DNA of 64,000 nucleotides from Rhizophagus irregularis (lineage: Eukaryota; Glomeromycota; Glomeromycetes; Glomerales; Glomeraceae): contig NC_089436.1 of assembly GCF_026210795.1 (NCBI RefSeq), positions 4,588,001-4,652,000 on the forward strand, given 5' to 3'. Every line of letters starts with the position of its first letter. Within the stretch, counting starts at the first letter, position 1. This document shows positions 13,872 to 52,141 of the stretch, piece after piece. The translations under genes were made by a program, and so were the position numbers. The notes under the pieces were generated by a model. It worked only from the letters and a program-made list of their open reading frames with translations, made no database searches and had not been told where the DNA came from.

Positions 13872-16800
13872 ATGGATCATAGAGGTAATTATATAGCATA
13901 AATATTTAATATAAAATTAGAATTATCCCTAAACAATTTTGCAAATATAAACTAACTATATTATATAAAAATTATATAGCTCGTAAGTTAATAGGTTATC
14001 TTATAATTAAATAAAATTAAATAATACCAGAAACTAATTATTATTTTCATTATATTCTATGTACTAAATAATTTATTTAATGATTAATAATATCATAGTT
14101 TGTAAGTTATCAGTTATTTAAATTTTTAGTTTTTACTATTTATTTTACATAATATTCAAATAACTAAATTCTTTGTTTAAATAACTAATTAATTATATTA
14201 CAGCTGGTAAGTTATAATACTTAAAAATGTTATATTTAATATTGTACTCATTTATTAATATTTTAATATAATTTAACTAATTATATTCTTAATTTAATAA
14301 ATAGATTGTAAGTAATATATTCAATTTATAGTGAATATCTTTCTATTATATTTATATTTAACTAATTAAAAATTAATAATAATTCAGGGTGTAAGTTATA
14401 CGATGTCTATATTTCTATTGTTTAATCCACAATTTAAGCTAACTAAATTTCTTTATTTGAAAAATTATTTAAATAATATAGTTCGTAAGTTATTTATTTA
14501 ATTCTATTATTACTTATTGTTGTAATATTTACATATAATTTAAACTAACTAAATTTCTTTATTTAAAAAATTATTTTATAGGTGGTACGTAATTTATTTA
14601 ATTCTATTATTACTTATTGTTATAATATTTACATATAATTTAAACTAACTAAATTTTTTTATTTAAAAAATTATTTTATAGTTGGTACGTTATTTATTTA
14701 ATTCCATTATTACTTAACGTTATAATATTTACATATAATTTAAACTAACTAAATTTCTTTATTTAACAGATTGTAAGTTATAAGTTATTTATTTAATTCT
14801 ATCATTACTTATTGTTATAATATTCACATATAATTTAAACTAACTAAATTTCTTTATTTAAAAAATTATTTTATAGGTGGTACGTTATTCGTTTAATTCT
14901 ATTATTACTTATTGTTATAATATTTACTACATATAATTTAAACTGACTAAATTTCTTTATTTAAAAAATTGTTTAAATAATATAGGGCGTAAGTTATTTA
15001 TTTAATTCCATTATTACTTATTGTTATAATATTATATATAATTTAAACTAACTAAATTTCTTATTTAAAAATAATATAGAGAGTAAGTTATTTATTTAAT
15101 TCTATTATCACTTATTGTTATAATATTTACATATAATTTAAACTAACTAAATTTCTTTATTTAAAAAATCATTTAAATAATATAGAGAGTAAGTTACTAT
15201 TTATTTAATTCTCGTTTAATTCTATTATTACTTATTGTTATAACATATAATTTAAACTAACTAAATTTCTTTATTTAATAGATTGTAAGTTATAAGTTAT
15301 TTATTTAATTCTATTATTACTTATTGTTATAATATTTACATGTATAAATTTTAAACTAATTAAATTTCTTTATTTAAAAAATTATTTAAATAATATAGGG
15401 AGTAAGTTATTTATTTAATTCTATTATTACTTATTGTTATAATATTTACATACTATATTTAAACTAACTAAATTTCTTTATTTAAAAAATTATTTAAATA
15501 ATATAGGGAGTAAGTTATTTATTTAATTCTATTATTACTTATTGTTATAATATTTACATATAATTTAAACTAACTAAATTTCTTTATTTAAAAATAATAT
15601 AGAAAGTAAGTTATTTATTATATTCTATTATTACTTATTGTTATAATATTTACATATAATTTAAACTAAATAAATTTCTTTATTTAAAAAACTATTTAAA
15701 TAATATAGATAGTAAGTTATTTATTTAATTCTATTATTGCTTATTGTTATAACATATAATTTAAACTAACTAATTTCTTTATTCAATAGATTGTAAGTTA
15801 TAAGTTATTTATTTAATTCTATTATTACTTATTGTTATAATATTTACATATTATTTTAAAAAATTATTTAAATAATATAGGGAGTAAGTTATTTATTTAA
15901 TTATTATTTCTTATTGTTATAATATTTACATATAATTTAAACTTAAATAAATTTCTTTATTTAAAAAAATATAGGGAGTAAGTTATTTATTTAGTTCTAT
16001 TATTACTTATTGTTATAATATTTACATATAATTTAAACTAACTAAATTACTTTATTTAAAAATTATTTAAATAATATAGAGCGTAAGTTATTTATTTAAT
16101 TCTATTATTACTTATTGTTATAATATTTACATATAATTTAAACTAACTAAATTAAAAAATTATTTAAATAATATAGTTTGTAAGTTATTTATTTAATTCT
16201 ATTATTACTTATTGTTATAATATATACATATAATTTAAACTAACTAAATTTCTTTATTTAAAAAATTATTTTATAGATGGTGCGTTATTTATTTAATTCT
16301 ATTATTACTTATTGTTATAATATTTACATATAATTTAAACTAACTAAATTCTTTATTTAAAAAATTATTTAAATAATATAGAGAGTAAGTTATTAAGTTA
16401 TTTATTTAATTCTATTATTACTTATTGTTATAATATATACATATAATTTAAACTAACTAAATTTCTTTATTTAAAATAATATAGGGCGTAAGTTATTTAT
16501 TTAATTCTATTATTACTTATTGTTATAATATTTACATATAATTTAAACTAATTAAATTTCTTTATTTAAAAAATTATTTAAATAATATAGTTCGTAAGTT
16601 ATTTATTTAATTTTATTATTACTTATTGTTATAATATTTAAATATAATTTAAACTAACTAAATTTCTTTATTTAAAAAATTATTTAAATAACATAGGGAG
16701 TAAGTTATTTATTTAATTCTATTATTACTTATTGTTATAATATTTACATATAATTTAAACTAACTAAATTTCTTTATTTAATAGATCGTAAGTTATAAGT

Positions 16801-17161
16801 TATTTATTTAATTCTATTATTACTTATTGTTATAATATTTATATATAATTTAAACTAACTAAATTCTTTATTTAAAAAATTTATTTAAATAATATAGCTT
16901 GTAAGTTATTTGTTATTTCTATTGTTATATATTTATATAATATTTATTTGCTAACTGTATTCTTTTATTTTAAAATTTCTATTACTTTAGTTGGTAAGTT
17001 ATAAAATATAGCTTATTATTATATATATTTATACAAAAACTAAGACATATATTATCTTAAATTCCTATTTAAATTTTAGAGTAAGTGTTAATTTTAATCT
17101 TAAATTTTAGTGTAAATTTTATTATAAACATTTATATAATTTTAATTATTTAAATTAATAG
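13872..17161 (+). repeat. Tandem intron repeats separated by 31 three-nucleotide micro-exon candidates (5' part of kinase gene)
   Basis: After a candidate first exon (13872-13884, ATGGATCATAGAG) come 31 places where an acceptor AG is followed by exactly 3 nt and then a donor (GTAAGT, less often GTACGT or GTGCGT). They start at 13980 (CTC), 14099 (TTT), 14204 (CTG), 14305 (ATT), 14388 (GGT), 14482 (TTC) and so on to 16898 (CTT) and 16991 (TTG). Spacers of about 78-116 nt carry a TTTAAACTAACTAAAT branch-like block in most copies. The first five spacers differ strongly in sequence from the later, homogeneous ones yet keep the 3-nt rule. A possible 1-nt exon (A, 17080) would bring the frame into register with the kinase exon at 17162. 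Splicing is inferred, not shown. Confidence 0.7.
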
Positions 17162-18453
17162 ATTTGGGCAAAGTAGAAACAAAATCATAGATGAATTTAT
17201 TCTTGAAAAAAAGTTAAGTTGGATTCCTTATAATAAATTTAAAAATGTTGAATATCTTAATGAAGGAGGATTTGGTACTATATATAAAGCTACTTGGTCA
17301 CATTATGATGGAGATAAAGAAGTAATTCTTAAATGTCATAATAATTTAAATGAAAATTTAAATGAATTTTTAAATGAAGTATGATAGTATATTATTATTT
17401 TTTAATTTAAATTATAATTTACTTATATTAATATATTATTATTTTTTATAGTGGAAATATCATAGAAGTTGTTTAAATTCATATGAAATTATTTATTTTT
17501 ATGGATTTACAAAAAATCCAGATACTTTGAAATATATGGCAATAATGGATTATGCAAACAAAGGTAATTTAAGAGGAAATTTAACAAGAATAATTGAAAG
17601 TGGTTGGGGTCATAAACTATGCATGTTGTATGAAATTATTTCTGGACTTAATTGGATACATAATCAAAATCTTATTCATCATGATTTTCATGATGGCAAT
17701 ATTTTAAATCATAATGAGAGTCAAATTTTTATTAGTGATTTAGGATTATGTCAACCTGTAAAATCATTATTGAAAAAACACAATATTTATGGTGTTGTAC
17801 CATTTATGGCACCTGAAGTATTAAGAGGCAAACCTTATACTCCAGCTAGTGATATATATAGTTTTTCTATGATTATGTGGGAATTTACATCTGGGATACC
17901 ACCATTTAATAATAGAGCACATGATATTCAACTTAGTTTAAGTATTTGTAAAGGTGAACGTCCTGAAATTATTGAAAATACTCCACAATGCTATGTTGAT
18001 TTGATGAAAAAATGTTGGGATGAAGATCCATTAAAAAGGCCATCTTCTAAGGAAGTTTCAAAAATTATTAATGAATGGATTTCTCTTCCTTATGATAAAA
18101 AAATTGAAGACATTAATGAAGAATTAAAATGTAATATTATGGAATTTATAAATGCACCAATTGGGCATAACAATCTTACTACCGAATCTCACTCACAGGC
18201 TTACTATAAAAGTCGCTTACTTAATTTTACTAGTAAACAATTGAATGAAATTCTTGAAAGTAAAAATTCACAAACTAGTATACAAGTGAGTGAAATGCTA
18301 GAAAGCAATGATTTGAATGAATGTATGTTTGATTTGAAGAAATTAGGTATGTAAAGTGTATATAATATAGCTGTTATAATATAAAATAAATTAATTTACA
18401 AATTAATTAATTTATTTATTTAATTTTTAGATATTAAAACAAATGAAAATTAA
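17162..18453 (+). CDS. Protein kinase of the tyrosine-kinase-like type, catalytic part
   Basis: Three exons follow the micro-exon array: 17162-17378, 17452-18346 and 18431-18453. The product carries NKIIDEFI, WIPYNKF, a glycine loop (GGFGTIYKATW), the ATP lysine in EVILKCH, the catalytic loop HHDFHDGNIL, a DLG version of DFG (SDLGLC), the APE motif (MAPEVLRG), DIYSF and the C-lobe motif WDEDPLKRPSS. All core catalytic residues are present, so an active Ser/Thr or dual-specificity kinase is likely. The C-terminal ~70 residues are non-catalytic. The frame of the 17162 exon requires two nucleotides from upstream, so the catalytic exon cannot be the first; the upstream micro-exon array is the candidate 5' end. 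The natural substrate is unknown. Confidence 0.85.
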
Positions 18454-23047: not shown

Positions 23048-23611
23048 ATGGAAATTGTAAATACAAATGATGAAAATTCTTTTGATCCAACACCAAGATT
23101 AAAATCTAGTCCTATACCAATTAAATTCATTTCTTTTAGATTATTAGATGAAAATTGTATTTATTGTGAAGAAAAATATATTAAAGCACTTTTTACTTCG
23201 CAAAAATATTGCAAAAAATGTTTATCACGTTATATTAATGATATAACTGAAAATGATATTTATTTGGATGTACACTATACAATGGACTTGGAATGTAGTG
23301 AACATGAAATATGTAGGACAAAAATACCATAAAGTATTCAAGAATTCTGTGGAAATTGTGTGAGAATTTTATGTTATAAACAAACAAATGGATATATTAG
23401 CGGATTTAACCTTGATGAAAATGATCGCACTCTATACAATAAGGTGATTGAAAGTGAACAAAATTGTAAATTATGTGGAAGGTTAATATATCGAGGAATA
23501 AATGAATGGTGTGTTGACGTTAAATTATGCTCAGATTGTTATTTAATTTCTTCTGGATTGATAGAATCAACCTTGTATAAAAAGCAAATTTCAATTCTTT
23601 ACTTACCATGG
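23048..23611 (+). pseudogene. 5' part of a kinase gene: cysteine-rich N-terminal region, split by a transposon
   Basis: Starts at ATG 23048 and reads in one frame to the transposon at 23612, apart from a TAA at 23330-23332. The protein has repeated CxxC-type pairs: CIYCEEKY..YCKKC, FCGNCVRILC, NCKLCGRLIY and LCSDCYLISSG, suggesting several zinc ribbons. It ends in LYLPW at the target site CCATGG (23606-23611). The remainder continues in the same reading register after the element, at 33294. This Cys-rich front end is known to me from glomeromycotan kinases (recalled). The gene is inactive through the stop and the insertion. Confidence 0.75.
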
Positions 23612-24056
23612 TATGGCAAGCCGTACTGGTCAAAAGTGTGCCGCATTTTGCGGCAGGTGCGCCTGTTTTTAGGCGCCTGATGCGCTAAGTGCGGCAGGTG
23701 CGCCTGTTTTTAGGCGCCTGAGTGCGGCAGGTGCACATAGTTTTTAGGCGCCTGATGCGCAGGATGCGCCTGGTTTTAGGCGCCTGAGGCGCCTAAGTGC
23801 GGCAGGTGCTCCTGACTGCGGCAGGTGCGCCTGTTTTTAGGCGCCTAATTGCGGCAGGTGCAGCAGATTGCGGCAGGTGCGCCTGTTTTTTGTTCCTTTT
23901 CGATCATAGGCTTTTTTTGGAAATAAGCGTCTTCTGAGCTTTTAGCATAGATCTACATACATTGCCAAAATTAATTTAATAATCTGATAAAAATAGTAAA
24001 GTTAAGATTTTTTTTGGTTCCAATGGATCGGATGTTGTTTTATCCTTGAATTATCA
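23612..24056 (+). repeat. Left terminal inverted repeat with GC-rich subrepeats
   Basis: About 445 bp matching 32846-33287 in inverse. The outer ~280 bp repeat GTGCGGCAGGTGCGCC and TGTTTTTAGGCGCCTGA about seven times. GGCGCC palindromes dominate, a strong base-composition contrast with the flanks. The inner part (CTGAGCTTTTAGCATAGATC) is AT-rich. Confidence 0.85.
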
Positions 24057-24997
24057 CTTTTTTTTCAACCAACTGAATTTTATTAAATTAAATGTTCAAA
24101 ATAATTATGAATATAAACATATAAAAAAATTTTTATCTTAATGGATTATCCATTGTATCATTTATTTTTTTATTTTTTTTATTTTTTTAAATTTTTTTTT
24201 TGCTTATAATCTTCAAAGTGCAATAAAATGAATAATTTCAATGTCTTTCTTTTATAATTGGTATTTTTAGTATCCTTTTTAAATATATTTATATAGCGAA
24301 ACAAGTAAAATTTATTTTTAACTTCATATGCAGTTTTACAATAAGAATTCTATTACCTTTTGATTACATAGTTGAATAAAAGATTTTGACTTTTTTTGAA
24401 ATTCAGTCTCAACATTCCACCTTTCAATGTGAAATAAGTACATAACAAACAAAGAAATTGAAAAACTAACAACTGAACACAATAATCATAAAAAGTTCTT
24501 TCATGTTTGTCATTATTATTAATCATATTAATACAAGATTTTATAATTATTAAATTATTATTAAGAGTTTACAAATTATAAAAAAAAATTTTGAAATTAT
24601 ATACATTGGTTAATCAAATCAACTGAACATAGAATTTGCCAATCAAAATTTTTAAGATCAGCCGCAGATGTATAAAAAAAACATTAGCCATATAAGAAAA
24701 AAAAAATGTACTGTAATTAGCAGACAATTTATTAAACATATCTGGCGTCAAAATTAAGCTATGCAAAAAAATGGTCAATTGTAATACCTCTTATAGAAAT
24801 TTTGATATCTCATTATTTTTTTCTTTTTACATTAGTTACTTTTTAAATATTGGCCTTGTATTGACCTTTATCTTTATATTAATGTAATATTAACATTACA
24901 TTAACTGTTAATGTTTTTTTTTACTAATGATTTTATTTGATTTATTGACAATAAAATTTTTAACATGCCATTAATACATGTGTACATAATTAAATCT
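24057..24997. other. AT-rich non-coding region inside the transposon
   Basis: Lies between the left inverted repeat and the stop of the HECT-like gene; probably its 3' untranslated region and spacer. No ORF of note. Confidence 0.5.
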
Positions 24998-27900
24998 TTA
25001 TCTCCTCCCCTTACTTCGTGTTATTCGTATTTGGTCTTCTATATGTTCTGGTAAAAGAACGTTCCAATTATCATTATCAAAACTTGTATTATCCTGCTGC
25101 TGATCTTGACTTCTTAACCTTCTCCTGCTAACTACATTACCACCACTCGTACCACCTCTCGTACCATGATTTCTACCACCTCTTCTACCTCTCCTGCTGC
25201 CTCTTCTACTAGTACTACCTCTCCTGCTGTCTCTTCTACTAGTACTACCTCTCCTACTTTCACTGCCATCAACATTTTCTTCTGTAAGATCATTTTCAAC
25301 TATAGTAAGATCATCTTCAACTATATTCTGAGGTGAAGTATTATTTAATTCAATTGTAGTTTGTGTTAAATCAATTACCTCAGCGTTACTAATAGTAGAA
25401 TTAAGGCGTGTATAATTATTCCGATAAGAACGTTCATCAAAACCTTCAGACTCAAAGAAACCTGTATCAAGATCAGCTTCAAAATTAATTTGTGATTCAC
25501 TGTTATTTTCATAAGTATCATGAAGTATTAAAACTGAAGCACAAGTGCTTGATATTGGAAGTTTTCTTAACCTAGAGCCTGTTGATCCTGCTGTATCTCT
25601 TAACCATTCAACCTATTTAACAACAAATGAAATTATTTAAGCAAATTTCCAGCAGGTAATCTCTACTATAAGCTTGAACCAACTAAAAATGAATTTTCAA
25701 TAAACTTACTTTTATTTTCAATGATACAGGTATCCTTGAAGATCCGGTTATAAACTTCATTATGAGCTCAAGGTTCTTTTTAGGCTGCTTGAATATGTAA
25801 TTTTGAAACCATCGGAATATTCTTTTTCTTGTTTCTGTTATCATATTTAATTCATTTATAGATGAGTCAAATTGATCAAAAAATTCTTCATAATTTAACT
25901 CTTTGTAGAGTTGCCTTTCGATTTTCTCCCATCCATAGTCTTGAAATAGCTATTATTTAAAAATTTATTTTTTAATAATGCAATTTTCTTTCTTTTTTTT
26001 TAAAAAAAAAAATACATACTCCAATTACATTGAGAATATTAAAACCTCTTTTAAGCATTTTAAGGCTTTCCAACCGTTTAATTACAACTTCATATTTGGA
26101 AATATATGAAGATAGCTCATGATTAGTCATAGATGAAAATTGCTCAATCTAAATAAATTACACAAAAGTCATTTTAAGTAAATCAATTCAATATTTTTTT
26201 TATAAACTACATTTTGAAAATCATACATTCTTATTTCTAGTGATCGCCCATAAGGATAATTTATCGTTACTTCTTAAACCTGATTGTAAATCAATGACGA
26301 ATTCATGAAGATATGGTATATATTCACCAAGTATATTAACAGCATTTATATTTTCTTCCCCATAAATTACATATACTAAATGCATTTTATGTAGCCATTT
26401 AGGCCATGCACCTTGGTGTAGCCAACACCAAAATAAAGCTTTTCCAATGATTTCAGGATACTTCCACTCGGTAGACTCATTATTATATTTAATAAAAAAC
26501 GTATTTTCTCCATCATCAAACAATCGGCCACCATTAACATTTTCAGTTTTAATCTTCTCCCAAAAGAATTCAGTTGTATCTCGAAATCCACCACCTGTAT
26601 CAGTCAAGCTAAATTTTAAAAAAAAATAAAAAAAATATATATTATTTATTACATTATTAATAAAATTTTTTTAAAAAATATATGATCTTACTCTTCATCA
26701 TTAATTCTGATAGCTGGTTTTTTAAGGATGTCCAATACATTGGCATTATGTAACCAATTTAATAATGAAGCAATTATATCATTTCGGGTACCAATAATAA
26801 TGTCGCTTATAAGATTGTCATCATCATAGAGGTAATTATCCAACCTAAATTTGTCTAATATTTGAATTCTAAACTCATCTGTATCTGGTAAGTTGTCTGA
26901 ATTTATAATTAATTTGTTGTTGGTAAAAAAATAAAAATAAAAATAAAATAATTAATGGTTGTTAAATAGTAACAGCATTTGTTTATTATGAGTAATATAT
27001 TACCTAATGATTGTTGAGCAAAATTAATAGCAGTCGTGCTTGTTTGAGTATTAGATCTTTGAATAACCCTATTATCACCAAAACCTGAATTTGCTCTTCT
27101 ACTATTGTATTAAGCAAAAAAGTGTGAAACATTAATTTTATAAAATTTTCTTTTTTGAATTACAATAAAACAAACCTTTCATTATTATGTTCTGTACCCG
27201 AGTCATGACTTGATGATTGTTCTGATTCACTATCTGAATTATCCTTTCCATCATTAAGTACGATACTTTTTTTTAGAGGAGCAATATATAACCTCTTTCT
27301 ATATGTAGCAGCACTAGTAATATATAATGTTATATATGTTATATATAATTAAGGATTTAAAAATTGATTGCTTATATTTACCTTTTTAATAATTCACGAT
27401 CTATTACTTGGCCCTCTCCAAAAGGTATTAATTGATTACTTTGAGTTGGCTTTAAACATGTCCAACCATAATCCTTTAATATCGGAAAATTTTTTAATAT
27501 CCTTTTGTTCACATAGTTAGCATCAGAACGTGTAAATTTTATAGTTTTCATCCATTGATTTTCTTCAAGCCATTTAAAACTAGATTTTTTAAATTTTAAA
27601 ATTAAATTAAACTAAATTAAATCAAAATGCTTGTTTTTACTTACATTGAAGTGCCTTCTTTTGGAACCATGTTTTTACTTCCTTTATATCTTAATAATAC
27701 CACTAGGGGCTCAAATGACTTAGTTTTTTTTCTTGTTTTATCATATAATTGTGAAGTTTCACGTATATTGATGTTATCCCTTATATTTAATAGCCTACTT
27801 CGCACTTCTTCATCATTTAAGAACCTATTAACATCATCATTTGATGAATAAGGGCCTGAAACAATTCTGTTTCTTGGAACTTGTATAGATGCGTCTCCTA

Positions 27901-28557
27901 TCTGTCTTGAATCTGAATTTGCTGATCCAGTAATATTTTGTGTAGACAATGTATTTGCGTTAAAATTAGAATTTGCTGATGTACTATGGATCTGTGCAGT
28001 ATTTGTATTTGATACATTTGAACTTTGGGCCATATTGGAATTTTGATTAGATGGTTTTTGAGATATAGTAGCCACTTCCCACTTTAATAAATTAATTTGG
28101 TATGTTAATAATAATTATCCATTCACTAAAAAATTGAATTTATAATATAGTAACTTCTTACTTGGTGATGCTCTCCTTCGTCATCATTGCACACTGCACA
28201 AATTTCTTCATTATCATTTGATTGGTCAAATTTTTGGCATTTACATTTATAACATTTCCTAGGTAGCATATCTAAATTTGGCAGATCACCAGCAAGCATT
28301 TTCTGATTGAAAACTAACTCTGCGTACTTAAAAGTTAATACAAAATAATGATTATTAAATATTATTATAATTATAATATACTAAAGAATAAAAAATGTTT
28401 CTTTATAAAACTAAAATTTATTTACTTGCTCATGGTAGTTAAAATGATGATTGCATAATCTACAAATACTTGGATTGTCAATATTTGCCTTGAATTTTTT
28501 ACATGTAGAACAGGCGTAACATTTCTTTGGTAAAGCATTTATATTATCTAAATCCAT
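24998..28557 (-). CDS. HECT-type E3 ubiquitin-ligase-like protein carried by the transposon (11 exons)
   Basis: Minus-strand exons with GT-AG borders, approximately: 28557-28426, 28326-28162, 28081-27645, 27579-27382, 27313-27176, 27101-27004, 26896-26692, 26608-26227, 26148-26020, 25949-25710, 25612-24998; about 710 residues. Phases agree across all junctions. The first two exons carry paired cysteines (CYACSTCKKF..CRLCNHH; CYKCKCQKF..CAVCND), likely zinc-binding. The middle is Ser/Asn-rich. From exon 8 the HECT pattern appears: DTGGGFRDTTEFFWEKI, then FITGSSRIPVS in exon 10 and RKLPISSTCASVLIL in exon 11, where the Cys matches the catalytic thioester position. The tail is RGS/RGG-rich. HECT-like genes in DNA transposons are known to me from animals only by recollection. 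Confidence 0.75.
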
Positions 28558-30926
28558 CCTAAGACAATATTAGTTCAAAACCATTCAGATTTCTTTTAAG
28601 AGTAAGGAGAGTAAAAATAAGCTTAAAACAGATAACGTGTATATTACTAGACAAGAAATGGTATAACAAAAAGAAATCAGACACGTCAAATAACATGTAA
28701 AAATACAAATGTTTATAGAGTGCAGCAACAAAGTATGCTTATGAATATGTGAACACCAGTTGGTGAAGAACAGGGAAATATTACGAACAATTATATTTAT
28801 ACATATTTCCCATCTCTTTTTTCTATTTATATTTTGCGATGAATTACATTTGAAATACTATTGTACAATTAAAATTTCAAGCCACAAAAAAAAAGTGTAC
28901 GCTTAATGATAAATCAGAAATTCGTATACTATATATTGTGCTGATTGTTACAATAAAGTTACAATAAAGATCAATAAATATACAATGTCTTTATAAACAA
29001 TACAAGTAAAAAAATGAATATAAAACTAATATTCTATCAATATGAAATAAATATAAATAAAAATATAAATTCAATGTTATCGCACTTTTGCACAATCAAC
29101 AGATGATCAGCATTTAGCAGATAATATTCGTTAATAATCATCTGTTGGAACCATCAGCATATATCAACGTGAATCAAGAAGCGTCAAATTATAGTATAAC
29201 ACATATAAATATTATCTGTTTTATTTCTTCACATGTAAAATTATGCAATCATGCAATTAAAAAAATACAATTTTTACCTTTAATTTAATATTTACAAATA
29301 AAGCTAGTGGTTCTAATATTGAAAAGATATGATTGTTTTGTAATGTGTATCTAATATCGCTTATTATATAAATATTCAAATAAATAAAAATATAGGATCC
29401 TGACAAATCCTGAAATCCATAATAGGGAATTATTGTATTTAATAAAATCAAAATTATTAATAAACAGAACAATATTTATATTGCGCCACAAATGGTAGCA
29501 TATATACTACTGTATAATATAATCCATGGTTTCAAAGTCATGTACTGTAAATATTTATACTAAAATAACCCTGCTCATTAGTTGTATATAACATTTATTT
29601 TTTTAAAAAAAAAGTCAAAGGTACATCAGTATCTTTATTAATTAATTATATAAATTATTTTTCTTTATTTTTTTAATAAAAGTATTTGCAAAAAAAATAT
29701 TAATTTTTGTTAAAACATAATAATTTAATAGTAATTCAATATATTATAAATGTTTTTGTTAAATAAGATTTTAAAGACAGAAATTTTATTTTACAAGAAA
29801 AAACGCGATTAACATTGATAACATAATTATTAAAATGAAATAAAAATAAAATATTAATTTTAAGGTAATGCTAAAATTCGGAAAAAATTGGGTCATATTT
29901 AGATTATCCTGTATAAATAATTTGAATTGTGTAACATTAAAAAGTGTGATATTCTTACGTCCGATCTATTTCGTATTTATCATATCATCATAATTACAAA
30001 AAAAATCTTTAAACTAATACATTTCCAGTTAATTAAAATTTCAACTGGATTTTTTTTATTCTAATGGATTAATACTAACAAAAAAAATATAATTTTTTTT
30101 ACCACAACTAACCATTTCTATTAGATAGACAATAATAATTTTTTTCCGAAAAATAATTTAAATTGAATAACTTGAAATCTCATGCCATATAATTATTCGA
30201 TCCGTGTACATTTTGATCAACTAATACAATTTCAGTTAATGAAATTTTTATTTTTTTTAAAAAAACTTTTCTCCCTTTCTTCTTTTGGTTTAGTTTTTTT
30301 TTTCAAACTGAAAAATTTTTTTTTCTCGTTCTCTTTTGTTTTTTTTATACTTAAAATATAAAATTTTTACACATAAACCTTATTTCTTTACTTAATGTAC
30401 TTGTAATTAAGTAAAAAGATGTGAAAAAAGTTTAAGTTTAAATACTGTTTGAATGTAAAAAACCAAGTTCGAACTTCAAATGTTTTGTCACACAAAAAAT
30501 ATGTAGTACAGCTCAATTTTGAAAAATAATAAACTATTTTTATCACGGTTCAGGGTTACGTACCCAATTTCATAAGACCTGGGTATTTTACTAGAAATAA
30601 AAAATAATTCCTATCTTAGAACCTGGGTAAGTTCTGGGTAATTAATAAATACTAATAAGGTGTAATTATTTTTTGTAACAATAATTTAGCGTAACACTTT
30701 TTTTTTAAAAATTTTTTAACTCACATGCAAAAAAAATTTTTCTAATTAGTCATAAGTACTATATATATTACGTATTGAAACAAATTTTGATGTGGCTTGG
30801 AACAGGTAGTAAATCTATGTTTAGATAATCTTTTTTTCCAGATATTAAAAAGAAAAATCTTAAAAAGAAAAATCAAAAAAAGAGAATAACAGAACATTTA
30901 ATTACTTTGTTGAGTTAAATATAATC
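28558..30926. other. Spacer between the two divergent transposon genes
   Basis: About 2.4 kb of AT-rich DNA between the divergent starts of the HECT-like and transposase genes; it should contain both promoters. No further gene. Long poly-T and poly-A runs at 30060-30370. Confidence 0.5.
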
Positions 30927-32372
30927 ATGTCACAGGAAAATTTCGAAAGTTATGCTGGAGAGTGTTTATTCAATGCTATCAATATTCTAGAAAAAGGTGA
31001 TGATATAAATGCAATGGAATTACAAGTAGAACGTCTTGCAACATTAGTTTCAATGTATTTAGGAGTTCAGAATTTTTATAGTGATGAGACTTTTCAAACA
31101 AAGTTAGATGATATAAATTTTGTTATAAACAGACTAAATCAAAGAATTGAGTTCTTAAATAATGACACTAGTTTTGCTGTTAGAAATTTTGTTCAAAAAG
31201 AAAAAACAGGTGGAAGACCAAAATCTTTGATCAATGAAGACGTTGTTAAATTATTAAGACAACAAGGATATAATTGGACGGATATAGCAAATACATTTAA
31301 TATATCTGTTAAAACTTTAAGCAGACGGAGAGAGGAAAGTAATCTTCAAGATACAATTCAGCCATATACTGATCTTACAGACGATGAACTTGATGAGATT
31401 GTTAAGCAGTTGAAGTCAGAAAATCCATTTTTTGGACAAAGTATGATGATGGGTGCTGTATGTTCAAGAGGAATCAGAATTACTAGGCAACAGTTACGTG
31501 ATTCTATTCAGCGTGTAGATGCTTTGGGTACTGTTACACGCAGGATTAATATCATTCCACGTCGTGTATATCATGTTGCTGGTCCAAACGCATTATGGCA
31601 TATAGATGGTCACCATAAGCTTATTCGGTGGAAATTAGTAGTTCATGCTGGTATTGATGGATTTTCAAGGGTAATAACATATTTGCACTGTAGTAATAAC
31701 AATACATCTGACACTGTATTTGTATATTTCAAAGAAGGTTGCGATCACTTTGGTACACCAAGTCGCGTCCAAGCAGACTGTGGTGGAGAGAATGTTAAAG
31801 TGCAAAGATATATGAATTCTTATCGTGGTGAAAATCGTGGAAGTTTTATTGCAGGGCGCTCTGTTCACAACCAAAGAATCGAAAGACTTTGGGTAGATTT
31901 AGCGCGTAATATAGTAAAGACTTATTTTACAATTTTTATGTATTTAGAGGATAGATGTGGATTAGATATTAATAATCCCATATACATTTTTTGCTTGCAC
32001 TATGTATTTATACCTCGAATAAATCAAAGTTTATCCCAATGGAAAGCTTCCTGGAATAACCACAAAATTCGTACGGAGAATCACCAAACTCCAATGCAAT
32101 TATACAGTAAAGGTATGATTGAATTAGGTTTTAGAGGAATGGAGGATGATTTAGTTGATCCAAATGAATACGGAATTGATTGGGAGGGTCCAACTCCTGC
32201 TGAAGAAGACAATACTGTGACTGTTGATGAACCAAGAAATGTATTGACAGACGAACAGTATCAATCTTTGCGATCAACGGTTAATCCATTAGAAGAGGAT
32301 GAAGAAGGTTTTGGAATAAATATTTATAAAAAAACAGTTAGTGTAGTAGCTAGAATTTTAAGAAATAATTAG
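30927..32372 (+). CDS. DDE integrase-type transposase
   Basis: Single-exon gene of 481 residues from ATG 30927. Residues about 90-130 form a helix-turn-helix-like region (LINEDVVKLLRQQGYNWTDI, then VKTLSRR). The integrase-core region follows: WHIDGHHKLIRW (first Asp), GIDGFSRVITYL, PSRVQADCGGENVKV (second Asp) and GRSVHNQRIERLWVDL (Glu), then HYVFIPRINQSLSQW. The complete DDE triad suggests an active enzyme, and no stop or frameshift is seen. It is the only transposase in the 9.7-kb element, so it should act on the long inverted repeats. Assignment to IS3EU rather than another integrase-like superfamily is tentative. Confidence 0.85.
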   Translation: MSQENFESYAGECLFNAINILEKGDDINAMELQVERLATLVSMYLGVQNFYSDETFQTKLDDINFVINRLNQRIEFLNNDTSFAVRNFVQKEKTGGRPKSLINEDVVKLLRQQGYNWTDIANTFNISVKTLSRRREESNLQDTIQPYTDLTDDELDEIVKQLKSENPFFGQSMMMGAVCSRGIRITRQQLRDSIQRVDALGTVTRRINIIPRRVYHVAGPNALWHIDGHHKLIRWKLVVHAGIDGFSRVITYLHCSNNNTSDTVFVYFKEGCDHFGTPSRVQADCGGENVKVQRYMNSYRGENRGSFIAGRSVHNQRIERLWVDLARNIVKTYFTIFMYLEDRCGLDINNPIYIFCLHYVFIPRINQSLSQWKASWNNHKIRTENHQTPMQLYSKGMIELGFRGMEDDLVDPNEYGIDWEGPTPAEEDNTVTVDEPRNVLTDEQYQSLRSTVNPLEEDEEGFGINIYKKTVSVVARILRNN

Positions 32373-32845
32373 TGATTTATAAAAATTTTATGCAATTATT
32401 TCTATTTTTGTTTAATAAACTGAGATTAATATTAATTAGGAAAGACTACTTCTTTATGCTCATATATAAATCATGAAAATTTAAACAGTACATAAAAATT
32501 TGTAATAAATTTTTAATTTTTTGAAATAAACTAAAATTGTTCACATTTAAAAATAGTATTATAATAACTATGACAGGATAAAAAGGGATCATGTAAAAAG
32601 GGTAGTAAATCGAGGAAAAAGAACAAGAAAGGATGGTAAGTTGGGTAGTAAAGTATCTGGATAGTTTATTTCGTTTATATGTACAATTTGTTTTTTTAGA
32701 AGTAGATACTTTATTAATATTAAGATAATTGTATAAACACCTATCATAATTTAGACGTAATTCATCTGCTGCTAATAAAGTTTTTAGAATAAAAAAAAAT
32801 AAAAATAAAAATAAAAAGAGATCATCACAAACCACAAGTCTGGTG

Positions 32846-33287
32846 ATAATTTCAAGGATAGAACAACATCCGATCCATTGGAACGAGTTTGAACCAAAAA
32901 AAAACTTAACTTACTATTTTTATCAAATTATTAAATTAATTTGGCAATGTACGTAGATCTATGCTAAAAGCTCAGAAGTTGCTTATTTCCAAAAAAAGCC
33001 TATGAACAAAAAACAGGCGCACCTGCCGCAATCTGCTGCACCTGCCGCAATTAGGCGCCTAAAAACAGGCGCACCTGCCGCAGTCAGGAGCACCTGCCGC
33101 ACTTAGGCGCCTCAGGCGCCTAAAACCAGGCGCATCCTGCGCATCAGGCGCCTAAAAACTATGTGCACCTGCCGCACTCAGGCGCCTAAAAACAGGCGCA
33201 CCTGCCGCACTTAGCGCATCAGGCGCCTAAAAACAGGCGCACCTGCCGCAAAATGCGGCACACTTTTGACTAGAGCGGCTTGCCATA
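32846..33287 (-). repeat. Right terminal inverted repeat
   Basis: Inverse of 23612-24056 with a few substitutions and indels (for example TAAGCAACTTCTGAG against TAAGCGTCTTCTGAG). It contains the same AGGCGCCTAAAAACAGGCGC subrepeats. The 32373-32845 region before it is non-coding. Confidence 0.85.
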
Positions 33288-33293
33288 CCATGG

Positions 33294-35632
33294 TGGTATA
33301 ATAATTCTATGTGCAATATTTGTAATTCAGAGTTAACATTTACATCAGACTGTCAAAAGTATTGTGAAAATTGTTTTATATTTTATGTTGGATGCAGATA
33401 TTGTTTAACAACAAACATTCTTTTTGGACCTACGGATCAATCTCAATGTAAAAAATGCAAAAGAATATCGTCCATAAATAGTGATTTTGATGGGTTTCTT
33501 TTTAATAATAATCTTATAACATGCGATAGTTTAGATTATTTGAAGTCAGTTGAATTTGAAAATATTGTAAAAAACATTAATAAATATTTTGTACCAGATA
33601 ATATATTACGGTCTATATTTAAAGAAAAAAAACAAGCAAAACAAAATGATAAGTGGATACCATATCGATATTCTCAATTTAAAGATATAAAAGAAATGAC
33701 AAAGGGAGGATATGGTATTATATATACAGCAACTTGGTCAAAAAAAAATAATAAAAATGAAATTGTCATTTTAAAAAGATTTGAAAATTCTAAAAATAAT
33801 GGCAAATATTTCTTAAATGAGGTAAAATATTTTAAATATTTCTTATATAATTTATATTAAACTAACTAAATTTTTAATTTAATTTAATCTTTAAATTTAA
33901 ATAGTTAAAATCATATTATCATTGTTTTAAAGACGAAAAGGGTCATATCATTGAAACTTATGGCTTTACAAAAGATCCTGAATTAGAGGATTACATAATA
34001 GTTATGGAATATGCATCAGGAGGGGATTTACATAAGCATTTGCAGAAGGGTTTTGTACGTATTACATGGGAATAGAGAAAAATTACGTATTTTACATCAA
34101 ATTTCAATGGGGTATTTATATTTTATATATGTACAGTATTTATTAATTTTTTAAATTTAAGTCATTAATTTTTTTTATATTTTTTAGACTTGAAACTATT
34201 CATAATAAAGAATTTATGCATCGAGATTTCCATAGTGGAAACATATTATTTGATCCAAATTTTAGAGTGTTAAATGATGATTGGAAAATTGGAGATCTAG
34301 GATTATCACAAGCTGTGAATAGTGAATCATCAAATAATGAAGTATATGGAGTAATACCTTACATTGCACCGGAAATATTTAGGGGGTCTATATTTTCTAA
34401 AGAAGCTGATATTTATAGTTTTGGTATGATTATGTGGGAACTTACAACAGGTTGTAAACCTTTTGACATGATCATCATCTTATTTATAAAATTCTTGATG
34501 GAGAACGACCTAAAATTACGGAAGATACACCAGAATGTTATGCTGAATTAATGAAAAGTTGTTGGAACCCTGATCCTAAAAAAAGACCTTCTATAAAAGA
34601 CATTCGTTTGGCTTTTGGTAGATGGATATATAAAAAAGTAAATAGGGAAGAATTTAGCCAAGGTGAAGCAAAAAGAGCGAAATTAATAGAATCAAAGAAG
34701 ATTGGACCGGAATTTGTTGAAAAATGTCATTTAGGAGCTATTTATACAAGCAGACCATTAAGTGCTTTAATTTCTAAATGTTCATCCATATATTCATTTT
34801 CAACAATTTCATTTGGTAAGCGAGGTATTACAAAAAAAAAAAATTAATCGTAATTTAAAAATATTATAATTTATTAAGAAATATGTTATTATATTCTTTA
34901 GATTCCAATTATATCTCAGAATTAGAGAATAGTAAAGACACTGAAAGGTATTTAAAATAAAAAAAATTATTTTAAATTATGTAATTAATTATTAATATTC
35001 AAATTTATTAATTTCCGATTAGTTTATCGCTACAAAATTTAAATTCTAATTACATCTCAGAAGAATTAGAGCTTGATATAGACATTGAAAGGTATTTCAA
35101 ATAACAAAAAAAAAAATATTTTTAAATAATACAACTAATTATTTGAATTTATTAATTTATTAATTAGTTTATCATCTCAAAATTTAAGTTCTACAATTCA
35201 AAATTTAGATTCTAGATATGTCTCAGCAGAATTAGAGCTTGATATAAACACTGAAAGGTATTTAAAATAATGATAAAAAAATGCTTTTAAATGACACAAC
35301 TAATTAGTATTTAATTTATCATGTAATAAGTTCTGCAATTCAAAATTTTTCAACCTCTTTAAAAAAAAGAAGAAATGAAGAATTTTTAAACGTAGAATCT
35401 CATGATAATAGTGGTAAATATTCATTTGGCTCGATGTTATTTTATTTTACTTTCATTTTAATCAATTACATTAATATTTAATTTTTTCATTTAAATCAAA
35501 TATAAAATATTATTTATAGGAAAACGTAATTATCCATAGAACTATAGAAGTAAAATATTTCATTATCCTGCAGATAAAGAGTATATAGAAATATTTAATA
35601 ATTTTTTATTGGACTTTCTCACTATAATAATT
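33294..35632 (+). pseudogene. 3' part of the split kinase gene
   Basis: Continues the gene begun at 23048 (WWYNNSMCNICNSELTF joins LYLPW). More Cys pairs follow (CRYCLTTNI, CKKCKRIS), then WIPYRYSQFKDI, glycine loop GGYGIIYTATW and EIVILKRF; the exon ends near 33819. The next exon (33905-34110) reads SYYHCFKDEKGHIIETYGF and VMEYASGGDLHKHLQ, with a frame change near a TAG at about 34073. Then FMHRDFHSGNILF, GDLGLSQAV, YIAPEIFRG and IYSFGMIMWELTTG, a one-base frame change near 34470, and CWNPDPKKRPS. Three similar tail exons follow (34902-34947, 35022-35091, 35167-35257). Catalytic motifs remain but the frame breaks make it a pseudogene. Confidence 0.8.
34902..35257 (+). repeat. Triplicated kinase tail exon
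   Basis: Three successive exon candidates share the coding pattern SNYISEELELDIDIE or variants, and each ends in GAAAG followed by GTATTT. The intervening introns are also similar, so exon plus intron was duplicated as a unit. Confidence 0.65.
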
Positions 35633-42718: not shown

Positions 42719-43158
42719 AGTAGTATGAAAACCCCAATTCTGGCTCACCCCCACCATATAATCTAAAATACTACCACTTTATATAATCTAATTACCACCA
42801 TCATATAACTTAATTACCATCATATAATCCACCTACCACTTTTACTATAATTTAACTACCACTTTCATATAATCTAGTTACCACCATCATATAATTTTAA
42901 TTACCACCATATAATCCACCTACCACTTTTCATATAATCTAGTTACCATCATATAGTTTTATTACCACCATACAACTCTATTACCACATTACAATCTGAA
43001 AAAATTAACCGAACAAGAAATAGGATTTCAAAGCCAACGGAGCCAAAAAAGGTAAGGAAATATTAACCCATCCAGGAAACCAGCCATGGAGTCAATAGAG
43101 CGGAATAGCAAGGCAAGCAATTACCCTTATACCGAGAAAAAATGTAATTGAATAAAAG
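42719..43158 (+). repeat. Left 440-bp terminal inverted repeat
   Basis: Matches 54277-54716 in inverse, both 440 bp. The outer half repeats TATAATC(T/C)A(A/C)(T)TACCAC motifs. The inner 100 bp are unique, and the inner edge is the promoter-like motif. Confidence 0.95.
43136..43158 (+). promoter_or_regulatory. Shared promoter-like motif, copy 1
   Basis: GAAAAAATGTAATTGAATAA plus AAG, ending 39 bp before the ATG of the first F-box-like gene. Identical 23-bp copies precede the polymerase and the rightmost gene. Confidence 0.7.
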
Positions 43159-43197
43159 GTAGGTACCAAGTAACTATACAGATAAATAGTACATAAC

Positions 43198-43545
43198 ATG
43201 GTATATACCGCAGTATCAGCAATCCCTGAACTTGTAGGCCATATCCTGGAATACATTCCAAATAGAAATTTTGGGACACATCTTCTAGAAGTCAGCCCAA
43301 TCTGGAGAGTTGAAGCTGAACGAGTACTCTGGAAGCGGTATAAAAAAGCCGAGGAGGCATACGACAGGGCAGTAAAAAAGAAGGAAAAAGCAAATGATGC
43401 TCTTGGCCAATCATTGGAGGAGGAGGGTATCCTCCATGAACTTGAATGGGAGGCATATCAAAAGGCTTGTAAAGAGAGAACAAATGCCGCAGTAGAGCAT
43501 ATTATAGTAAAAGAAGCTATTCGCCGTTGTAACTTACAACTATAA
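43198..43545 (+). CDS. Small F-box-like protein with coiled coil
   Basis: 115 residues from ATG 43198. The N-terminus (IPELVGHILEYI, then LLEVSPIWRVEAERVLWKRY) follows the F-box pattern: a hydrophobic helix, then a conserved Val/Trp-rich segment. Residues about 50-85 are highly charged (AYDRAVKKKEKANDALGQSL) and probably helical. F-boxes bind Skp1 in SCF ubiquitin ligases; that this one does is inference. It is the first gene inside the left inverted repeat, with the shared motif just upstream. Not a standard Polinton gene. Confidence 0.6.
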   Translation: MVYTAVSAIPELVGHILEYIPNRNFGTHLLEVSPIWRVEAERVLWKRYKKAEEAYDRAVKKKEKANDALGQSLEEEGILHELEWEAYQKACKERTNAAVEHIIVKEAIRRCNLQL

Positions 43546-43702
43546 GTTACTTAAGGATAGAGAATACATCGGGACGAGGATGTGTTCGGTGACTCGGATG
43601 ACGATGACTCAGATGGTGAGGAATAGTTTAGGAAGACAGTACTAATCTGTCTCCCTCTTTTTTTACCCTCATAGGGTAGGCGAACAATTAATTTTATTTT
43701 CA

Positions 43703-43725
43703 GAAAAAATGTAATTGAATAAAAG
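43703..43725 (+). promoter_or_regulatory. Shared promoter-like motif, copy 2
   Basis: Identical to the 43136 copy, followed by TATAAAAAG and then ACAAGATG at the polymerase start (ATG 43748). Confidence 0.75.
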
Positions 43726-43747
43726 AGGAGTATAAAAAGTTTACAAG

Positions 43748-46700: not shown

Positions 46701-47643
46701 GGTCTATGAAGCTATAAAATTCGAGCAGGCTCCATGGATGAAACCATATATAGAATTTAACCCCGCCGAATGTGCTAAGGCTAAGAATGATTTTGAGAAG
46801 GACTTCTATAAACTCATGAATAATAGTGTATTTGGTAAAACTATGGAAAATCTCAGGAAACGTGTACGTGTCTCAGTAGTACAACCCCAAACCCATCCCA
46901 AGAAATATAAAAAGCTTACCTCAGATCCTGCATTCAAGGGTCGTAAAATATTCTCAGAAAATCTTGTTGCAATCCACCGACGAAAAGTGGAGGTAATGCT
47001 TAACCGTCCAACATATGTGGGTATGAGTGTGCTTGACCTCTCGAAGCTCTGTATGTATCAATTCTACTATGATACTCTTAAAGTACGATATGGTGAAAAA
47101 ATCCAGTTATGTTATACAGACACAGACTCACTTCTTGTACAAATCCAAACTGAGAATATTAATGCAGACCTCATAGATATGGCAGACCAATTTGACTTTA
47201 GTGATTATCCTAAAGATCATCCTGTACGAAAAGCATTAGGTGATAAGACTGACATAAATATGAAAATCCCAGGGAAATTTAAGGATGAATGTAATGGAGC
47301 AGTTATAGCAGAATTTATTGGCCTCCGTCCCAAAATGTACTCCATTCTCAAGGTAGGGGATGAGACCACCAATCCAAAACATGGTATCCGTAAGGCTAAA
47401 GGTGTCCCCTCAAAGGTAGTTAAAAAAGAGTTCCACCATGAGCGGTATAATAAGGCACTCTTTGATCCTAAACATAATGATACAGTCACCTTTAGAGCAA
47501 TCCGATCTGATAGACATGCTATAAATGTTATAGAAATGTCGAAGGTAGGGTTATCCCCTATGGATGATAAAAAATGGATTGCACAAGATAATATCACAAT
47601 GTATGCACATGGAGATTATAGGATACCACAACTTGAAAATTAA
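43748..47643 (+). CDS. Protein-primed-type family B DNA polymerase, one frame change
   Basis: About 1,300 residues. An N-terminal part contains DDDKCFQWAILAALHP (Polinton-like N-terminal region), then a C2H2-like finger (CRWCISHFTH..HDKHVAIC, ~residue 380). Exo I is VADFEALV (~437), followed by an endonuclease-VII-like Cys/His block (CWICRNPLDG, RDHCHITGRYRGAAH, ~534-565). Exo II is FHNLSGYDGH (~580) and Exo III YLKTDVLLLAD (~752). Polymerase motif A is ILYLDANNLYGW, motif B KLMNNSVFGKTMENL, and motif C YTDTDSLLV near 47115. The first frame ends in TAG at 46307; the rest (motifs A-C) is in the -1 frame, with the change between about 46256 and 46306 and no obvious slippery heptamer. All catalytic residues survive, so it is a recent mutation, a sequence error or recoding. 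The stop shares bases with the integrase stop. Confidence 0.9.
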
Positions 47644-51709: not shown

Positions 51710-51894
51710 GTGTACCTTGGATTGATCGTGCTAATGTCATTCTAGATTTCCAAAATCGGCAACTGACCATCCCTCTATCATCACGTAAAAAAATTACCAT
51801 TCCAATTTCTCTACATAAACGGAAAACTAACGTGACTTCCTTGCAGATGGATACTATCGACTTAAAAAAAATTCACACTCTCGAGGAAGATTAA
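51653..51894 (+). CDS. Retropepsin C-terminal half in the -1 frame
   Basis: About 80 codons. LLLGVPWIDRANVILDF is the conserved second half of a retroviral/Ty3-type aspartic protease; the catalytic DTGS lies upstream in the Gag frame. Only frame change joins them, because no ATG in this frame would give a complete protease. The segment ends in TAA 51892-51894 after a second A-run. Confidence 0.65.
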
Positions 51895-52013
51895 CCTGTC
51901 ATCTATGTGGAGCAAGTTTTGACTTTCCCTCTAAGTTAAAGCGTCATCTTGCTAGGAAAAATCCATGTGTTTCCCAAACTTCTGCGGCAATGATGGGCAG
52001 TGGCGGGCAGTGA
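51831..52013 (+). CDS. C2H2-type zinc finger in a further -1 frame
   Basis: The frame is open from 51831 to TGA 52011-52013, without an ATG before the finger. CHLCGASFDFPSKLKRHLAR plus KNPC forms a finger of the kind seen in Polintons and large DNA viruses. The protease frame meets another A_AAA_AAA heptamer (TTA AAA AAA ATT, 51864-51870); a -1 slip there continues into this finger. A DNA- or RNA-binding role is inferred. Confidence 0.5.
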   Translation, partial: RDFLADGYYRLKKNSHSRGRLTCHLCGASFDFPSKLKRHLARKNPCVSQTSAAMMGSGGQ

Positions 52014-52128
52014 CAGGGCAGTGCCTAAATTTTTTCGGCAGTGACGGGTAGTAACAAAGCAGTGCCCAAATTTTTTCGGCAGTGACGGGCAGTAACAGGG
52101 CAGTGCCCAAATTTTTTGGCAGTGATTA
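51983..52128. repeat. Three-copy tandem repeat of ~47 bp
   Basis: Units contain GGCAGTGACGGGCAGTAACA, then GGGCAGTGCCCAAATTTTTT, between the zinc finger and the second F-box-like gene. Non-coding in the frames considered real. Confidence 0.8.
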
Positions 52129-52141
52129 GCCTTTACAAATA

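What the first reader, a model, noticed from the sequence alone, without database searches (positions are those of the whole stretch)
13872..17161. Thirty-one consecutive 3-nt micro-exon candidates in one kinase gene
Every acceptor-to-donor distance in the array is exactly 3 nt, although the intron-like units vary in length (about 78-116 nt) and the first five are almost unrelated in sequence to the rest. Read in the phase set by the first exon (13 nt), the codons contain no stop and give ALSDWFRVDCGQKNWRKNNW followed by further basic and aromatic residues; another phase would hit TGA. A 1-nt exon at 17080 would bring the frame into register with the kinase exon. A protein segment assembled almost one codon per exon from tandem, introner-like introns is not something I know described. 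It suggests growth by intron-plus-codon duplication.
Basis: partly seen in the sequence, partly recalled or inferred. Interest (0 to 1): 0.93.

Follow-up and report, generated by a model that had tools for sequence, protein, structure and literature searches.

The report
Kinase genes built from single-codon exons
In a soil fungus that lives with plant roots, a family of kinase genes appears to spell a variable stretch of each protein with dozens of separate exons of only three bases each, an arrangement I found no description of.

Summary
Window 13872-17161 carries a 13-nt first exon, 31 AG|NNN|GT sites all spaced exactly 3 nt, a 1-nt exon (17080) and then a kinase exon in frame. The genome fits Rhizophagus irregularis DAOM197198. 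The architecture recurs: one intron variant gives 1323 sites genome-wide against 1 in the control, and all 100 listed are spaced exactly 3; 84 of these 100 lie upstream of listed kinase exons, same strand.

The main evidence for splicing and translation is internal. Across 692 adjacent triplet pairs in 21 arrays, the junction codon in the phase set by exon 1 is never a stop (mean 23.7 in shuffles). Pairs two to five triplets apart show no clear avoidance. So neighbouring triplets behave as joined and translated in one phase, each normally included. No RNA was available.

Triplets are hypervariable while flanking introns are near-identical. Linkage runs across the exon, not within the intron, so the inherited unit is an exon-centred codon cassette that recombines inside introns. 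That supports intron-plus-codon duplication and argues against mobile introners. What the variable segment does is inferred only.

The parts
13872..13884 (+). exon 1, ATGGATCATAGAG, 13 nt, ends in phase 1
   Evidence: ATGGATCATAAAG|GTAA starts two other arrays read here (L050, L051) and lies about 1 kb upstream of a third listed kinase exon, C8:4790599, array not read
13980..14390 (+). triplet exons 1-5 (CTC TTT CTG ATT GGT; codons giving ALSDW), introns outside the homogeneous repeat; ATT GGT recurs near the start of 12 of 21 arrays
   Evidence: TRF array begins at 14431
14431..16886 (+). homogeneous tandem array, unit about 100 nt, carrying triplet exons 6-29
16898..16993 (+). last two triplet exons CTT (16898-16900) and TTG (16991-16993); CTT recurs in 14 and TTG in 16 of 19 arrays modelled to the end
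17080..17080 (+). 1-nt exon (A) flanked by TTTTAG and GTAAGT; restores the kinase frame
17162..17378 (+). first kinase exon (FGQSRNKIIDEF...)
   Evidence: relatives
17452..18346 (+). second kinase exon, with most of the catalytic domain
18431..18453 (+). last coding exon (IKTNEN, stop TAA); splice sites chosen by eye

Best explanation
The array is a set of constitutive 3-nt exons in a Rhizophagus irregularis protein-kinase gene, one of a family that probably has more than a hundred members (inferred; 22 arrays read). Each intron of roughly 100 nt has a near-perfect donor (GTAAGT), a CTAAC-type branch site (by eye) and a TAG acceptor. The 31 triplets plus a 1-nt exon are joined between exon 1 and the kinase exons. 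Each residue is encoded by the last base of one triplet and the first two of the next. Because the exons are too short for both ends to be recognised at once, splicing is probably sequential, each removed intron handing the growing exon to the next donor (inferred). Every unit adds exactly 3 nt of mRNA, so units can be gained, lost or exchanged without frameshift. Recombination takes place in the near-identical intron bodies and shuffles exon-centred cassettes (acceptor, codon triplet, donor). Under diversifying selection this yields a hypervariable segment of roughly 10-65 residues ahead of a conserved kinase domain. The segment may serve as a recognition or partner-binding region (inferred). 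Shown: the architecture, its recurrence, stop avoidance in one phase at neighbouring junctions only, cross-exon linkage, triplet hypervariability. Inferred: the spliced mRNA itself, sequential splicing, selection as the cause of the diversity, and the function.
For: Exact spacing 3 in 31 of 31 window sites. Free-length splice chains in 18 anchored arrays: 651 of 686 internal exons are 3 nt, 19 are 1 nt. Genome-wide pattern with a 0-30 nt gap: 661+662 matches, control 0+1; 100 of 100 listed have spacing 3. Phase-1 junction stops 0 of 666 pairs by the chain model and 0 of 692 by plain pattern (2000 shuffles, mean 23.7, minimum 11); 0 of 542 pairs unique per array and 0 of 256 globally unique pairs, so repeats do not explain it; phase 2 has 97. 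Lags 2-5: 19/603, 18/546, 16/493, 8/448 against expected 18.0, 15.4, 14.0, 13.2. Phase 1 from the ATG exon to the array in 14 loci where it could be picked out. The 1-nt A kept. Kinase side: 84 of 100 sites, 0 on the wrong side or strand. A kinase picked because it lacked the window's intron variant still has 18 triplet sites. Linkage 0.780 bits across exons (407 cases) versus 0.063 within introns (381 cases). Near-identical introns with different triplets. Donor GTAAGT at 713 of 792 plain-pattern sites.
Against: No RNA or peptide evidence was available. None of the 56 database proteins found holds the strings LSDW or ALDDW, or DWY in its first 60 residues. Existing annotations read the triplets in phase 0: P0030 checked at the DNA, and by eye P0005, P0013, P0016, P0024; they appear to use a 5-nt exon AGTAA in place of the 1-nt A. 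Phase 0 is itself nearly free of stops (1 among 666 second triplets), so its openness alone is no argument either way. 16 of 686 modelled exons are neither 3 nor 1 nt, and 6 of 21 model products (L042, L046, L049, L054, L056, C11) hold stops at or after such exons: missed sites, insertions or decayed genes. L061 has a broken fifth position. A weak protein match at C4:772369 (E 0.12) runs from residue 23 of the peptide and was not examined. The unit and linkage classes were defined by me, partly by acceptor ends. Diversity could reflect a mutational process or history rather than selection.
Confidence: 0.85

Rival explanations
1. The array is a non-coding minisatellite or one long 5' intron; the real protein starts near the kinase exon, and splice-like motifs are simply part of the repeat unit.
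For: Several of the 16 database models shown start at or within a few residues of FGKS/FGQS (for example P0003, P0004, P0019). The unit is a tandem repeat.
Against: A non-coding repeat gives no reason for zero phase-1 stops at neighbouring junctions across about 100-nt introns while phase 2 and lags 2-5 show nothing like it, nor for a fixed 3-nt spacing with hypervariable content, an open phase 1 from the ATG exon to the array and a conserved 1-nt exon.
Confidence: 0.06
2. The triplets are spliced and translated, but in phase 0, with a 5-nt exon AGTAA in place of the 1-nt A, as existing annotations have it.
For: 29 residues of the P0030 N-terminus are an ordered subset of the 33 phase-0 residues of its triplets from GGA on, followed by SK as AGTAA would give; four other annotated N-termini look the same by eye.
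Against: Neighbour-specific stop avoidance exists only in phase 1. The exons before the array end in phase 1. P0030 reaches phase 0 only through an extended exon at the GGT triplet that skips the first triplets (by eye). In the window the donor after AGTAA is GTGTTA, while the 1-nt exon has GTAAGT. TGA triplets occur in L040, L047 and L048. Gene finders may set a minimum exon length above 1 nt (recalled), which would force the 5-nt choice.
Confidence: 0.05
3. Mobile introner-like introns invaded an ordinary coding exon every 3 nt, so introns are young copies and the triplets are the old exon.
For: Introns are far more alike than triplets; introner-like elements are known in other fungi (PMC4457414, start of abstract in a listing).
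Against: The two ends of an intron are nearly unlinked (0.063 bits; shuffle mean 0.025, maximum 0.060) while the two sides of an exon are strongly linked (0.780). Triplet blocks are themselves repeated within arrays, for example TTA ATG ATC ATC GGT twice in L043. A search of the genome with the peptide found 13 places, 12 of them matching only from residue 32 on, the kinase side; one weak match from residue 23 was not examined. Array length differs greatly between paralogues.
Confidence: 0.06
4. Triplets are optional cassettes: alternative skipping of any 3-nt exon makes many isoforms per gene, as in schistosome micro-exon genes.
For: The triplet exons are each 3 nt, so skipping keeps the kinase frame.
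Against: Skipping one triplet would create stops at the random rate (19 of 603 lag-2 pairs, expected 18.0), so there is no sign that skipped forms are kept open by selection.
Confidence: 0.1

Closest known systems
Schistosome micro-exon genes (MEG), PMC10526429 (passages read)
   Same: Runs of consecutive very short exons, mostly multiples of three; variable protein; hard to annotate; a gene family.
   Different: MEG exons are given as 6-81 bp in the text (3-81 in the abstract), mostly 15 bp, 10-20 per gene, with introns of 0.1-5 kbp, secreted products and alternative splicing of central exons. Here the exons are 3 nt, up to about 60 per gene, with introns near 100 nt that are copies of one another, attached to a kinase, and showing no sign of skipping.
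Single-nucleotide exon of Arabidopsis APC11, PMC4674806 (abstract and opening paragraph read)
   Same: A constitutive 1-nt exon between introns, like the A at 17080.
   Different: There one case in a single-gene study; here the last member of a chain of 3-nt exons, repeated across a gene family, without RNA proof.
Fusarium CYP621A 1-nt exon, PMC12940212, and Drosophila homothorax 3-bp micro-exon, PMC7392893 (abstract starts in a search listing)
   Same: Exons of 1 and 3 nt are reported in a fungus and an animal.
   Different: Single exons as far as the listing shows, not arrays.
Fungal introner-like elements, PMC4457414 (abstract start in a search listing)
   Same: Many similar introns in one fungal genome.
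   Different: Here the inherited unit spans the exon, not the intron, and 84 of 100 listed sites lie before one kinase family.
Coding minisatellites (recalled)
   Same: Tandem units change in number by unequal recombination without frameshift.
   Different: Here nearly the whole unit of about 100 bases would be removed by splicing and only one codon's worth remains.

Membership tests
Protein kinase, Pfam PF07714 | kinase domain profile above cut-off | tested here: met
   144.2 bits, cut-off 23.1, residues 65-312
Micro-exon genes (MEG) | run of consecutive very short exons, multiples of three | tested here: met
   by splice-signal model, no RNA
Micro-exon genes (MEG) | exons of 6-81 bp, mostly 15 bp | tested here: not met
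   651 of 686 exons are 3 nt; definition from PMC10526429 passages, whose abstract gives 3-81
Micro-exon genes (MEG) | alternative splicing of the central exons | tested here: inconclusive
   lag-2 stops at the random rate, 19 of 603, so no sign of selected skipping; RNA needed
Micro-exon genes (MEG) | secreted protein with signal peptide | not tested
   no signal-peptide program run
Introner-like elements | intron moves as one unit, both ends inherited together | tested here: not met
   within-intron linkage 0.063 bits, shuffle maximum 0.060; cross-exon 0.780
Introner-like elements | copies inserted in many unrelated genes | tested here: inconclusive
   84 of 100 listed sites lie within 12 kb upstream of a listed kinase exon on the same strand; the other 16 have no listed kinase and were not read; 100 of 1323 sites were seen
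Constitutive 1-nt exon | single base between acceptor and donor, needed for frame | tested here: met
   sequence only
Constitutive 1-nt exon | present in cDNA | not testable with these tools
   no RNA data held

The most novel reading that the evidence does not exclude
A codon-by-codon diversification system: a large kinase family in arbuscular mycorrhizal fungi keeps a hypervariable recognition segment whose residues are stored one per exon in recombining intron satellites. Recombination inside the near-identical introns cuts and pastes single codons between positions and between chromosomes without breaking the frame, and each new junction makes a new residue because codons straddle the exons. 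This would be exon shuffling at its smallest possible scale, working as a generator of protein diversity.
Probability: 0.5. Interest if true: 0.97.

Novelty: categorically new. Interest (0 to 1): 0.94.

Why it matters
Minimal exon size and splice fidelity are usually discussed with single tiny exons. Here dozens of 3-nt exons in a row would have to be joined without error, in gene after gene, by ordinary GT-AG signals. That makes the question of how short a chain of exons a spliceosome can handle directly testable. It also offers a case of exon shuffling acting on single codons, and a hypervariable protein region that the database models I saw miss or read in another phase. If the segment is a recognition surface, it could be a diversity system in a widespread group of plant symbionts.

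Tried and rejected
Chance: rejected by spacing and stop statistics. Non-coding satellite: rejected by neighbour-only stop avoidance. Phase 0 as annotated: considered because of P0030, put low by junction statistics and the phase of the exons before the array. Mobile introner: put low by linkage. Ancestral unbroken exon: a protein search of the genome found 13 places, 12 of them only on the kinase side; the weak thirteenth, C4:772369, was not examined. Skipping isoforms: no selection signal. The first splice-chain model, trained on the window alone, broke at other acceptor types and was replaced by models trained across arrays. Model exons of 4-23 nt are probably missed or decayed sites and were kept in the counts; of the 19 1-nt exons there, 17 are the terminal A, one is a T in L051 (where an A with an AAG acceptor lies nearby) and one a T inside L054 that modelled as AGT.

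Rows left out of counts: in the pair tests, pairs with introns above 135 nt or an exon other than 3 nt, or outside 60-135 nt. L048, L055 and L057 had no anchor and entered with the chain. Partly seen lists: 100 of 1323 places; about 150 of 345; one search lists 151 scored matches out of 3848 candidates and says that more exist, and only those on C1, C2 and C3 below 1.1 Mb entered. Of the 56 proteins, 16 were read in full and all 56 were searched for strings. No structure prediction was tried, because the spliced protein is not a letter-for-letter reading of the DNA.
Full report
WHAT IS THERE. The window is G000:C8:4588001-4652000; G000 has 146,748,485 bases in 32 contigs. All 56 proteins found with the N-terminal part of the kinase bear a Rhizophagus name. 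A 2023 assembly of R. irregularis DAOM197198 has 32 scaffolds, 146,773,001 bp and a scaffold N50 of 5,085,394 (PMC10234402, passages); contig C13 of G000 is exactly 5,085,394 long, so I take G000 to be that assembly or a near copy. In the window, 31 sites of the form AG|NNN|GT(A/G)NGT follow one another from 13978 to 16989, all with spacing 3; 27 of the 31 donors are GTAAGT. They follow a 13-nt exon 1 and precede a 1-nt exon at 17080 and a kinase exon at 17162. Joined, they give MDHRALSDWFRVDCGQKNWRKNNWRKLYERLRNPFEFGQSRNKIIDEF..., open through the kinase to a stop, and the frame needs the single A. The kinase domain scores 144.2 bits with PF07714, cut-off 23.1.

IT IS A FAMILY. Two units of the window used as a DNA query match 345 places, a lower bound, in clusters on many contigs. 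I read 21 arrays with their surroundings (window, L039-L057, and the P0030 gene on C11 from L058 and L060), later a 22nd (L061). In 11 of 11 loci one strand holds 14-62 spacing-3 sites and the other strand none. A splice-chain search with exon length free from 0 to 24 nt gives 651 of 686 internal exons of 3 nt and 19 of 1 nt in 18 anchored arrays; the remaining 16 have 4, 6, 7, 12, 14, 15, 20, 22 or 23 nt and look like missed sites, insertions or decay. The longest chain has 65 exons, 61 of them 3 nt (L046). A genome-wide pattern, TATAG, a gap of 0-30, GTAAGTTATTTATTT, finds 661 and 662 matches on the two strands against 0 and 1 for the reversed control; all 100 listed matches have spacing exactly 3. 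Of these 100, 84 lie within 12 kb upstream, same strand, of a kinase exon listed, and none lies on the wrong side or strand; 12 of 14 listed kinases on that part of the genome have such a site. One of the other two, C1:2435838, was then read: it too carries 18 triplet sites, though its fifth position and its kinase acceptor region look decayed. The second, C3:122213, was not read. The kinase list itself is capped.

THE TRIPLETS ARE JOINED AND TRANSLATED. Exon 1 ends in phase 1, so each codon is the last base of one triplet plus the first two of the next. A stop appears only if a triplet ending in T is followed by one starting AA, AG or GA. With plain pattern matching and no model, 692 neighbouring pairs in 21 arrays contain 0 such stops; shuffling the partners within arrays gives a mean of 23.7 and a minimum of 11 in 2000 shuffles. 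Counting each pair once per array leaves 0 of 542 (Fisher 5.9e-12), once overall 0 of 256 (Fisher 5e-6), and without the window 0 of 662. With L061, 0 of 705. Phase 2 has 97 stops. With the chain model, 0 of 666 at lag 1, but 19 of 603, 18 of 546, 16 of 493 and 8 of 448 at lags 2 to 5, against expected 18.0, 15.4, 14.0 and 13.2. The two triplets of a pair are separated by about 100 nt of intron (median 100). I know of no DNA-level process that would forbid a combination only between direct neighbours and only in one phase. Translation of the joined triplets does, and it also implies that each triplet is normally included.

FRAME AT BOTH ENDS. In 14 of the 21 arrays I could pick out, by eye, an ATG exon ending in phase 1. 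In six of these one or two further exons lie before the array, eight... counted as the rows of that output: two each in L042, L054 and C11 and one each in L043, L046 and L049, nine in all. Each of the nine has a CTAG acceptor that gives a multiple of three and an open phase-1 frame, with similar products such as VSSNIEEFE...ESK. At the other end, the 1-nt A between acceptor and GTRAGT is found in the 20 arrays whose 3' end I held: 17, L048, L055 and, with an AAG acceptor, L051. It is also in L061. Amino-acid content shifts modestly against shuffles (Asp, Trp, Phe, Glu up; Val, His down); the stop deficit is the largest effect, z -6.2.

HOW THE ARRAYS EVOLVE. Intron flanks can be near-identical between units on different chromosomes while the triplets differ. 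Between arrays, 118 pairs have 0-1 substitutions over at least 150 intron bases. The 109 pairs with one substitution differ at 0.69, 0.44-0.51 and 0.74-0.75 of the three triplet bases; the four pairs with no difference or indel at all differ at all three bases. In the commonest unit class (315 units, defined by its last ten intron bases, which are therefore near-uniform by construction) diversity at the three triplet bases is 0.66, 0.45 and 0.61, while 36 of the 50 neighbouring intron positions shown lie under 0.2 and the highest is 0.46. The middle triplet base, the third codon position in phase 1, is the least variable in 4 of 5 classes; this fits selection for amino-acid change but could also reflect mutation or history. 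Linkage shows the inherited unit: the 3' end of one intron and the 5' start of the next, on either side of a triplet, share 0.780 bits (407 cases; shuffle mean 0.023), while the two ends of one intron share 0.063 bits (381 cases; shuffle mean 0.025, maximum 0.060). Exchange therefore seems to happen inside introns and to carry exon-centred cassettes. Blocks of cassettes are also tandemly duplicated, for example TTA ATG ATC ATC GGT twice in L043. Within one array, units with identical flanks mostly keep the triplet: 20 of 26 pairs without indels, as expected of recent duplicates. ATT GGT (giving D-W) recurs near the start of 12 of 21 arrays, CTT in 14 and TTG in 16 of 19 just before the 1-nt exon, so the ends look old and the middle young.

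WHAT ANNOTATION MADE OF IT. None of the 56 proteins found holds LSDW or ALDDW, or DWY in its first 60 residues. The annotated protein P0030 has the N-terminal string GEEGILELVIELLLGIGLLLELGILGIEL; these 29 residues are an ordered subset of the 33 phase-0 residues of the triplets at its locus. By eye it is entered through an extended exon and left through a 5-nt exon AGTAA. P0005 (R. diaphanus), P0013, P0016 and P0024 look similar, not checked at the DNA. So at least one gene model with a long chain of 3-nt exons already sits in databases, in the other phase; I cannot say whether transcripts or prediction made it.

HOW IT MAY WORK. An exon of 3 nt can hardly hold acceptor and donor complexes at the same time (general knowledge), so introns are probably removed one after the other, each time rebuilding a donor next to a growing 5' exon; 713 of 792 plain-pattern donors are GTAAGT, which fits recognition from the intron side. 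This order is inferred. The variable segment in front of a conserved kinase suggests a recognition or docking surface; that is a guess from architecture.

AGAINST. No RNA, no peptide, no second isolate's DNA. Phase 0 is nearly stop-free as well: 1 of 666 by the model, TGA triplets in three loci by pattern. Six of 21 model products contain stops, at or after exons that are neither 3 nor 1 nt. One weak protein match that reaches into the triplet-coded part was not examined. The classes in the diversity and linkage tests were mine. The loci were chosen by DNA similarity to the window, except the P0030 gene, L059 and L061, chosen by protein; all three have triplet sites.

COMPARISON AND NOVELTY. 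The nearest known kind is the schistosome micro-exon gene, whose exons are 6-81 bp, mostly 15, with introns of 0.1-5 kbp and alternative splicing (PMC10526429, passages). Isolated 1-nt and 3-nt exons are known (PMC4674806, abstract and opening paragraph; others from the listing). The ten text searches listed no paper that by title or abstract start treats arrays of 3-nt exons or micro-exons in Rhizophagus; subscription papers and bioRxiv preprints are largely outside that library.

Noticed in passing
window 23605-33294: Element with 291-nt terminal inverted repeats (99% complementary, partly made of tandem repeats) and a 481-aa ORF at 30927-32372 with an integrase core domain (PF24764): probably a large DNA transposon.
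   Followed up: partly
window 42719-54716: About 12-kb element of higher G+C with terminal inverted repeats of about 440 nt; its 853-aa ORF (43748-46309) matches DNA polymerase type B, organellar and viral (PF03175), and another ORF weakly, below cut-off, a gag profile (5 of the 7 ORFs listed for both elements were searched). Resembles self-synthesising DNA elements.
   Followed up: partly
   Followed up: no
L058 and L060 (gene of P0030): An annotated database protein already contains 29 residues that match 3-nt exons read in phase 0; other annotated relatives look alike by eye.
   Followed up: partly
L042, L043, L046, L049, L054 and the C11 gene, upstream of the arrays: Between the ATG exon and the array lie one or two exons, some with degenerate repeats such as EEFERSS and GTKESK, of varying length, open in phase 1: possibly a second variable segment.
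   Followed up: partly
L056, L045, L047: GC donors occur inside some arrays (8 in L056, one each in L045 and L047 by the model; GCAAGT at 12 of 792 plain-pattern sites).
   Followed up: no
L039, L049, L051, L053: Some modelled introns are 199-477 nt long; in L049 and L053 unrelated sequence is visible inside, with splice signals kept. Others may hide missed exons.
   Followed up: no
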